A DNA stretch of 12,632 bases, from assembly GCA_025965815.1 (NCBI GenBank), contig JAOPWF010000147.1, positions 1 through 12,632 of the forward strand. The letters are read 5' to 3'. This DNA comes from Mycobacterium sp. GTDB taxonomy: Bacteria; Actinomycetota; Actinomycetes; Mycobacteriales; Mycobacteriaceae. The position numbers were made by a program, and so were the translations under genes. Of the stretch, positions 528-1,496 are shown in pieces. The notes below the pieces were generated by a model. That model saw only the letters and a list, made by a program, of their open reading frames with translations, was not told the origin of the DNA and made no database searches. The first letter of the stretch is position 1. Each line of letters starts with the position of its first letter.

Positions 528-1496
528 GTGAGTCAACAAGTTCCGGGACTGCACCTGGTGCAGGGAGACGAGGAACTTCTCGTCGAGCGCGCCGTTGCTG
601 AGGTGCTGCGCACCGCGCGCTCGCAGGCCGGCAACGACGATGTGCCGGTGAATCGGATGCGGGCCGGCGAGGTGAGCACCAACGAACTCGCCGAACTGTT
701 GAGCCCGTCGCTGTTCGCCGACGAGCGGGTGGTCGTTCTCGAAGCGGCCGCCGAGGCAGGGAAAGACGCGGTCGCACTGATCGCCGGTGCCGCGGCGGAC
801 CTGCCCCCCGGGACGATGCTGGTCGTCGTGCACTCCGGCGGCGGACGAGCCAAGGCCCTGGCCGGTCAGCTGCGCGACCTCGGCGCCCACGTGCACCCGT
901 GCGAGCGCATCACGTAGGCCGCCGAGCGGGCCGACTTCGTTCGCGGCGAGTTCCATACGTTGCGGGTCAAGGTCACCGACGACACGATCACCGCGATGGT
1001 CGAGGCCGTCGGCTCCGACATCCGGGAACTGGCATCGGCGTGCTCGCAGCTCGTCGCCGACACCGACGGCAAGGTGAACGCCGCGGCGGTGCGGCGCTAT
1101 CACAGCGGAAAGGCCGAAGTGTCCGGCTTCGAGATCGCCGACAAGGCCGTCGTCGGCGATGTGGTCGGCTCGGCGGAGGCGCTGCGGTGGGCGATGATGC
1201 GCGGCGTGCCGCACGTGCTCGTCGCGGACGCACTGGCCGAAGCGGTGCATTCGATCGCCCGGGTCGGGCCACTGTCCGGCGACCCCTATCGGATGGCAGC
1301 GGAGTTGGGCATGCCGCCGTGGCGGGTGCAGAAGGCGCAGAAGCAGTCGCGGCGCTGGTCGCGCGACTCGGTGGCGCAGGCCATACGGCTGGTGGCGACG
1401 CTGAATGCCGATGTCAAAGGCGCGGCGGCGGACGCCGATTATGTACTGGAAGCCACCGTCCGGAAGGTGGCGGAACTGGTCGCCGACGGCCGGTGA
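528..1496 (+). pseudogene. holA: DNA polymerase III delta subunit, interrupted by in-frame TAG
   Basis: Delta is the clamp-opening subunit of the replicative clamp loader. One reading frame starts at GTG 528 and ends at TGA 1494-1496 (322 codons, the usual size), but codon 130 at 915-917 is TAG. Homology continues in the same frame across it: 'CERIT' before the stop, 'AAERADF' after it, then 'GSDIRELASACSQLVADT' and 'GMPPWRVQKAQKQ', all typical of actinobacterial delta. From memory the interrupted position is Lys in relatives, which would make this AAG to TAG. The first 129 residues include the Leu62-Phe63 pair matching the clamp-opening wedge of E. coli delta; the part after the stop carries the lid and collar regions needed for clamp-loader assembly. 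Restart could use TTG 960 or ATG 996. No frameshift was seen. It may be a true nonsense mutation, a sequence error, or a suppressed codon. The gene ends 4 bp from the end of convergent rpsT. Confidence 0.9.

What the first reader, a model, noticed from the sequence alone, without database searches (positions are those of the whole stretch)
915..917. In-frame amber codon in the normally essential clamp-loader delta gene
The holA frame is uninterrupted in homology on both sides of TAG at codon 130, with no frameshift. Delta is needed for chromosomal replication, so a plain knockout is hard to accept without a second copy, suppression, reinitiation or a sequence error.
Basis: partly seen in the sequence, partly recalled or inferred. 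Interest (0 to 1): 0.7.

Follow-up and report, generated by a model that had tools for sequence, protein, structure and literature searches.

The report
Stop codon in draft-genome replication gene
A stop codon really does interrupt the DNA-replication gene holA in this draft mycobacterial assembly, but an almost identical intact copy exists elsewhere and little points to special decoding, so it is most likely a sequence error or a rare dead copy and not new biology.

Summary
In detail: TAG at 915-917 is codon 130 of holA (clamp-loader delta). The pieces before and after it match one delta profile at positions 2-129 and 131-320, so one codon is replaced without a frameshift. The window is one whole contig of a draft mycobacterial genome in 877 contigs, 80.94% complete. 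The frame is open in 109 of 109 relative loci tested. A near-identical intact 322-aa delta (P0001; 128 of 129 and 189 of 192 residues) lies on a longer contig; among the listed hits the truncated products occur only on a 12,632-base contig. Both halves show ordinary purifying selection, so the stop is recent or artefactual. No second holA was found and no CTA-anticodon tRNA; release factor 1 is present; TAG ends 98 of 336 called genes. Best reading: consensus error (0.72), then a real rare nonsense allele (0.16). Suppression is not excluded: four of four interruptions I accept here are TAG, but TAG is 60% of one-step nonsense, so p = 0.13. Interest is low.

The parts
528..914 (+). holA, first piece (residues 1-129 of DNA polymerase III delta), GTG start
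   Evidence: NF005918 positions 2-129, E 1.1e-61; 128 of 129 residues identical to intact P0001, the one difference being how the GTG start is written
915..917 (+). in-frame TAG in place of codon 130
   Evidence: sequence; 109 of 109 relative loci tested are open here and the position is 99% conserved
918..1496 (+). holA, second piece (residues 131-322) with its own TGA at 1494-1496
   Evidence: NF005918 positions 131-320, E 2e-102; PF21694 DNA_pol3_delta_C; 189 of 192 residues identical to P0001
1501..1761 (-). rpsT, ribosomal protein S20, intact; usual neighbour of holA in the relatives
   Evidence: TIGR00029 E 1.4e-31; found in 79 of 80 relative loci fetched around holA
6026..6379 (+). first piece of a second interrupted gene, a membrane-protein-like gene of unknown function (no Pfam match)
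   Evidence: many listed homologues are 227-245 aa, others shorter
6380..6382 (+). second in-frame TAG of the window
   Evidence: also found by the composition scan
6383..6757 (+). second piece of that gene
   Evidence: homologues in 13 of the 59 other genus genomes searched; 10 of these 13 show no stop inside the match, 3 show one

Best explanation
The TAG is a single wrong base call in the consensus of a thinly covered or strain-mixed draft assembly. The living population carries an intact holA. Shown: a one-codon replacement, an intact near-identical copy elsewhere, no trace of decay, no decoding apparatus for TAG in the held part of the genome. Inferred: that the base itself is wrong, and that coverage was thin; no reads were available.
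For: The genome is fragmentary: 877 contigs, 80.94% complete, 3.2% contamination, and the window is a complete 12.6-kb contig. Only 22 tRNA genes were found. P0001 is an intact 322-aa delta with 128 of 129 and 189 of 192 identical residues, on 2 contigs (longest 21,264 bases). The truncated products P0002 and P0241 have one member each, on a contig of 12,632 bases, the window's length (120 hits listed in each search). The three further amino-acid differences from P0001 lie at residues 150, 158 and 182 and none elsewhere. All four differences thus fall in 53 of about 321 codons (0.015 for four random places, a post hoc figure), as a poorly supported or chimeric stretch could give. pN/pS of both pieces against 80 relatives is ordinary: 0.233 and 0.211, against 0.248 and 0.188 among the relatives. 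Other conserved genes of the same assembly are interrupted by one stop in the same way: a FadD-like ligase (profile 2-335 and 337-543) and a DctA transporter (6-359 and 372-423).
Against: No reads, coverage or base qualities could be seen. P0001 differs at three more residues and so may be another strain, not the same molecules sequenced again. The strict scan does not show this genome to be significantly worse than others: 1 accepted interruption in 619,381 readable bases against 0 hits in 1,350,816 readable bases of relatives (one event alone would fall in the own sample with p = 0.31), at about 18% sensitivity. All four accepted interruptions of this genome are TAG, none TGA or TAA (p = 0.13 at a TAG share of 0.60). 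For the second TAG of the window no near-identical full-length copy was listed, and the truncated form has three member sequences, so that stop may be real.
Confidence: 0.72

Rival explanations
1. A real, recent nonsense allele carried by some cells or a dead or dying strain of the sampled population, captured in the consensus; it is deleterious and transient.
For: The gene is otherwise undecayed, as a very young mutation would be; P0001 shows that another allele exists.
Against: Delta is reported essential in M. tuberculosis (PMC5694481, passages), so such an allele should be too rare to win a consensus.
Confidence: 0.16
2. Amber suppression or readthrough: a suppressor tRNA inserts a residue at TAG in holA and other genes of this organism.
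For: Four of four accepted interruptions in this genome are TAG. In the loosest scan TAG was 12 of 19 hits here and 2 of 12 in closed relatives, though half of the 12 own hits that I checked are gene boundaries. Only 22 tRNA genes were found, so a suppressor could be in the missing part.
Against: None of the 22 tRNAs has a CTA anticodon; two tRNA-shaped patterns with CTA have no match in the held genome, with a form that fits 16 of the 22 known tRNAs when their own anticodon is used. RF1 is present at 486 bits without stops. TAG ends 98 of 336 called genes, no depletion against 39 of 164 in three closed relatives. TAG is 60% of one-step nonsense here, so four of four has p = 0.13. 109 of 109 relative loci tested have a sense codon.
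Confidence: 0.05
3. Two-chain delta: translation restarts after the TAG and the two pieces reassemble.
For: Each piece matches its own stretch of the profile. The gene's own GTG start also has only a 3-base Shine-Dalgarno match, so weak signals do not exclude a restart; GTG 1089 (residue 188) has a 5-base match, at 17 bases upstream.
Against: The first in-frame start is TTG 960 (residue 145) with a 3-base match, then ATG 996 with none; a restart there loses 14 or more residues. The replaced residue is 99% conserved and 0 of 109 relative loci tested are split. Selection on both halves predates the stop and says nothing about a split.
Confidence: 0.03
4. A second functional holA replaces this one.
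For: About 19% of the genome is not held.
Against: Searches with either piece find only C547 plus a 24-bit match at C95 in an open frame of 749 aa; the single locus lies in the normal holA-rpsT setting.
Confidence: 0.04

Closest known systems
HolA, DNA polymerase III subunit delta (NF005918, NF004165, TIGR01128; HolA = Rv2413c in M. tuberculosis)
   Same: sequence over the whole length apart from one codon; neighbour rpsT; only one copy found
   Different: the frame carries an internal TAG, so the consensus encodes 129 aa and not 322
Single-base consensus errors in draft and metagenome assemblies (recalled, from no call)
   Same: isolated one-codon interruption of an undecayed gene in a fragmentary assembly, with an intact near-identical copy elsewhere
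   Different: reads are not available, so the error itself is not shown
Amber suppressor or stop-codon recoding systems (recalled, from no call)
   Same: in-frame TAG in conserved genes
   Different: no CTA tRNA found, RF1 present, TAG in normal use as a terminal stop, 0 of 109 relative loci tested with a stop there

Membership tests
HolA / DNA polymerase III delta | profile match over the full family model | tested here: met
   NF005918 2-129 and 131-320 of 321, pieces searched apart
HolA / DNA polymerase III delta | one uninterrupted reading frame | tested here: not met
   TAG at 915-917
Decayed pseudogene | relaxed selection or further lesions | tested here: not met
   pN/pS of both pieces as in relatives; no frameshift
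Amber suppression or recoding | tRNA with CTA anticodon | tested here: inconclusive
   none of 22 tRNAs, no pattern match; genome about 81% complete
Amber suppression or recoding | TAG rare or absent as terminal stop, or RF1 lost (marks of full recoding; partial suppression need not show them) | tested here: not met
   98 of 336 called genes end in TAG; RF1 present
Amber suppression or recoding | interruptions by TAG only, in excess of chance | tested here: inconclusive
   4 of 4, p = 0.13
Split (two-chain) protein | start codon with ribosome-binding site after the break | tested here: inconclusive
   weak matches after the break, but the gene's own start is as weak
Split (two-chain) protein | split form conserved in relatives | tested here: not met
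   0 of 109 relative loci tested
Consensus sequence error | reads disagree with the consensus base | not testable with these tools
   no reads are held

The most novel reading that the evidence does not exclude
A mycobacterial lineage in which TAG within essential genes is partly decoded as an amino acid by a suppressor tRNA lying in the unassembled part of the genome, so that holA, a FadD-like ligase, DctA and a membrane protein are all made through TAG while other TAG codons still terminate.
Probability: 0.04. Interest if true: 0.75.

Novelty: not a real feature. Interest (0 to 1): 0.1.

Why it matters
Mainly as a caution: a single stop in an essential gene of a fragmentary assembly is weak evidence for new decoding or gene loss unless reads or a second assembly of the species support it. 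If suppression were real, it would be a natural amber-decoding mycobacterium, which would be surprising.

Tried and rejected
Second holA: Pfam PF06144 in the own genome gave no match, but that is a weak test, since the window's own first piece scores 20.5 bits, below the 21-bit cut-off. Searches with each piece found only C547 and a weak match at C95.

First codon-usage models were trained on ORFs polluted by antisense frames and found nothing, not even the known TAG; they were replaced by an iterated model. A first pass over the relatives' holA mishandled minus-strand loci and terminal stops; the corrected pass is.

Composition scan for interrupted frames in 100 sampled own contigs (89 readable, 619,381 bases): the strict setting gave 2 hits, one a FadD-like gene (accepted), one the cydA/cydB boundary (rejected). 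The setting with a shorter start filter gave 4, among them DctA (accepted) and a DUF308/Rv1733c boundary (rejected); the closed relatives gave 1 there. The loosest setting gave 19 hits, of which I checked 12 by families: 2 accepted (FadD-like, DctA), 6 gene boundaries, 4 undecided; 7 with a start 2-4 codons after the stop were not checked. Three more weak candidates from the 30-codon setting stayed undecided (one of them checked against Pfam only).

The controls are 0 only in the strict setting. Laxer settings gave 1 to 3 hits in the closed relatives and up to 1 each in the two near-holA groups, 6 and 1 in those groups with a shorter start filter, and 12 in the closed relatives in the loosest; none of these was family-checked, so only the strict setting serves as control. 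At the loosest setting TAG was 12 of 19 in the own genome and 2 of 12 in the closed genomes. I take this as mostly gene boundaries and terminal-stop usage, but it does not speak against the TAG reading.

A sequence search for a solved relative of the second piece gave nothing credible. The paper search on stop errors in metagenome assemblies (listing only) gave nothing that I used.

Full report
What is there. Position 915-917 reads TAG in frame with the GTG start at 528. The 129-aa piece before it and the 192-aa piece after it match the delta model NF005918 at positions 2-129 and 131-320, so one codon is replaced and nothing is inserted or lost. The holA-rpsT arrangement is the ordinary one: rpsT is found in 79 of 80 relative loci fetched around holA.

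What the source is. The window is all of contig C547 of a genome in 877 contigs, 5.66 Mb, 80.94% complete, 3.2% contaminated. That it is a metagenome-assembled or poor draft genome is my inference from these figures; no name is given. The relatives are Mycobacterium, Mycolicibacterium and unnamed Mycobacteriaceae, with one record titled only Actinomycetota; the best of the 80 loci kept (of 258) have 83-85% protein identity over the second piece. The nearest of the 60 other genomes searched has 81% DNA identity.

Relatives are intact. In 109 of 109 loci tested (80 from genome contigs, 29 from the genome search, some the same organism twice) the two pieces are in one frame, one codon apart, without internal stops. 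The replaced position carries the same residue in 99% of them. Among the sequences tested the interruption is private to this one.

An intact near-identical copy exists. P0001, 322 aa, has 128 of 129 residues identical to the first piece (the one difference is how the GTG start is written) and 189 of 192 to the second. It lies on two contigs, the longer 21,264 bases. A search with the second piece (4,597 matches at E <= 1e-20 among the 8,000 candidates scored, 120 listed) and one with the first piece (191 matches among 755 candidates, 120 listed) show near-identical truncated products only on a 12,632-base contig, the window's length (P0002, P0241; one member each). Searches of the held own genome with either piece find no second copy, so P0001 comes from elsewhere or from the missing part; its source is not shown.

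Age of the stop. Pairwise pN/pS of the window against 80 relatives is 0.233 for the first piece and 0.211 for the second; among the relatives it is 0.248 and 0.188. There is no sign of decay, which fits a very recent event or an artefact.

Is TAG decoded? Of 22 tRNAs found none reads TAG. Two patterns for a CTA tRNA have no match; the same pattern form with their own anticodon fits 16 of the 22 known tRNAs. RF1 is present and uninterrupted. TAG ends 98 of 336 genes called in the 89 readable of 100 sampled own contigs, and 39 of 164 in three closed relatives. The genome is incomplete, so absence of a suppressor is not proved.

Other interruptions in this genome. A second TAG, at 6380-6382, splits a membrane-protein-like gene that is not universal in the genus: homologues of its second piece in 13 of 59 other genomes searched, 10 of the 13 without a stop inside the match. 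Its truncated form is a cluster of three member sequences and no near-identical full-length form was listed, so this stop may be a true shared loss. In 619,381 readable bases sampled from the rest of the genome I accept two more interruptions by family profiles: a FadD-like ligase and a DctA transporter, both TAG and both consistent with one replaced codon. Four of four are TAG. From the genome's codon usage TAG makes up 60% of one-step nonsense, so four of four has probability 0.13: not evidence for special decoding, but not against it either.

Controls. The strict composition scan found 0 hits in 300,000 bases of closed relatives, 0 in 93,829 readable bases of two draft relatives, and 0 in 956,987 bases around holA in 80 relatives. 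In the own sample it found 2, one of them a gene boundary. Its sensitivity is about 18% of gene codons. One event alone would fall in the own sample with p = 0.31, so the difference between genomes is not significant. Laxer settings also ring in the controls, and those hits were not family-checked. A second hit in the same 12.6-kb contig has a probability of about 0.02 at the sampled strict rate, so this contig may be worse than average, or the second stop is real.

Restart. The first in-frame start after the stop is TTG 960 at residue 145, with a three-base Shine-Dalgarno match; the next, ATG 996, has none; GTG 1089 has a five-base match, but 17 bases upstream. The gene's own GTG start has only a three-base match, so this test separates little. 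A two-chain delta is not supported by any relative (0 of 109) and is not strictly excluded.

Essentiality. PMC5694481 (passages read) reports the tau/gamma, delta and delta-prime subunits as essential in M. tuberculosis and lists HolA as Rv2413c. This makes a fixed knockout implausible and strengthens the error or rare-allele reading.

Verdict. The TAG is in the sequence as given. It is most likely a consensus error of a draft assembly, less likely a real transient null allele. Suppression, a split protein and a second gene are each unlikely on the evidence, and none is strictly excluded. Only reads or a second assembly can settle it.

Noticed in passing
window 6380-6382 (+), gene 6026-6757: A second in-frame TAG in a membrane-protein-like gene. 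The truncated 118-aa form is a database cluster of three member sequences, so this stop may be real and shared.
   Followed up: partly
L157:3657-3659 (-) (G000 contig C111): FadD-like fatty-acid ligase gene interrupted by one TAG, with profile positions 2-335 before and 337-543 after it.
   Followed up: partly
L143:3192-3194 (-) (G000 contig C353): DctA transporter gene interrupted by one TAG, with profile positions 6-359 before and 372-423 after it.
   Followed up: partly
window 918-1075 (+): The amino-acid differences from the near-identical P0001 lie within 53 codons from the TAG on (residues 150, 158 and 182), none elsewhere; possibly a chimeric or thinly covered stretch.
   Followed up: no
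database proteins: 9 of the 120 listed short delta proteins (129-202 aa) have a longest contig over 100 kb, such as P0274, P0295, P0302 and P0331. They may be contig-end cuts or similar errors; not checked.
   Followed up: no
window 1903-5428 (+): Cluster of circularly permuted ATP-grasp, Alpha-E and transglutaminase-like genes, intact; most of the relative loci carry them too (73, 71 and 69 of 80).
   Followed up: no
sampled contigs of G000: 11 of 100 sampled own contigs read entirely as N and were left alone.
   Followed up: no
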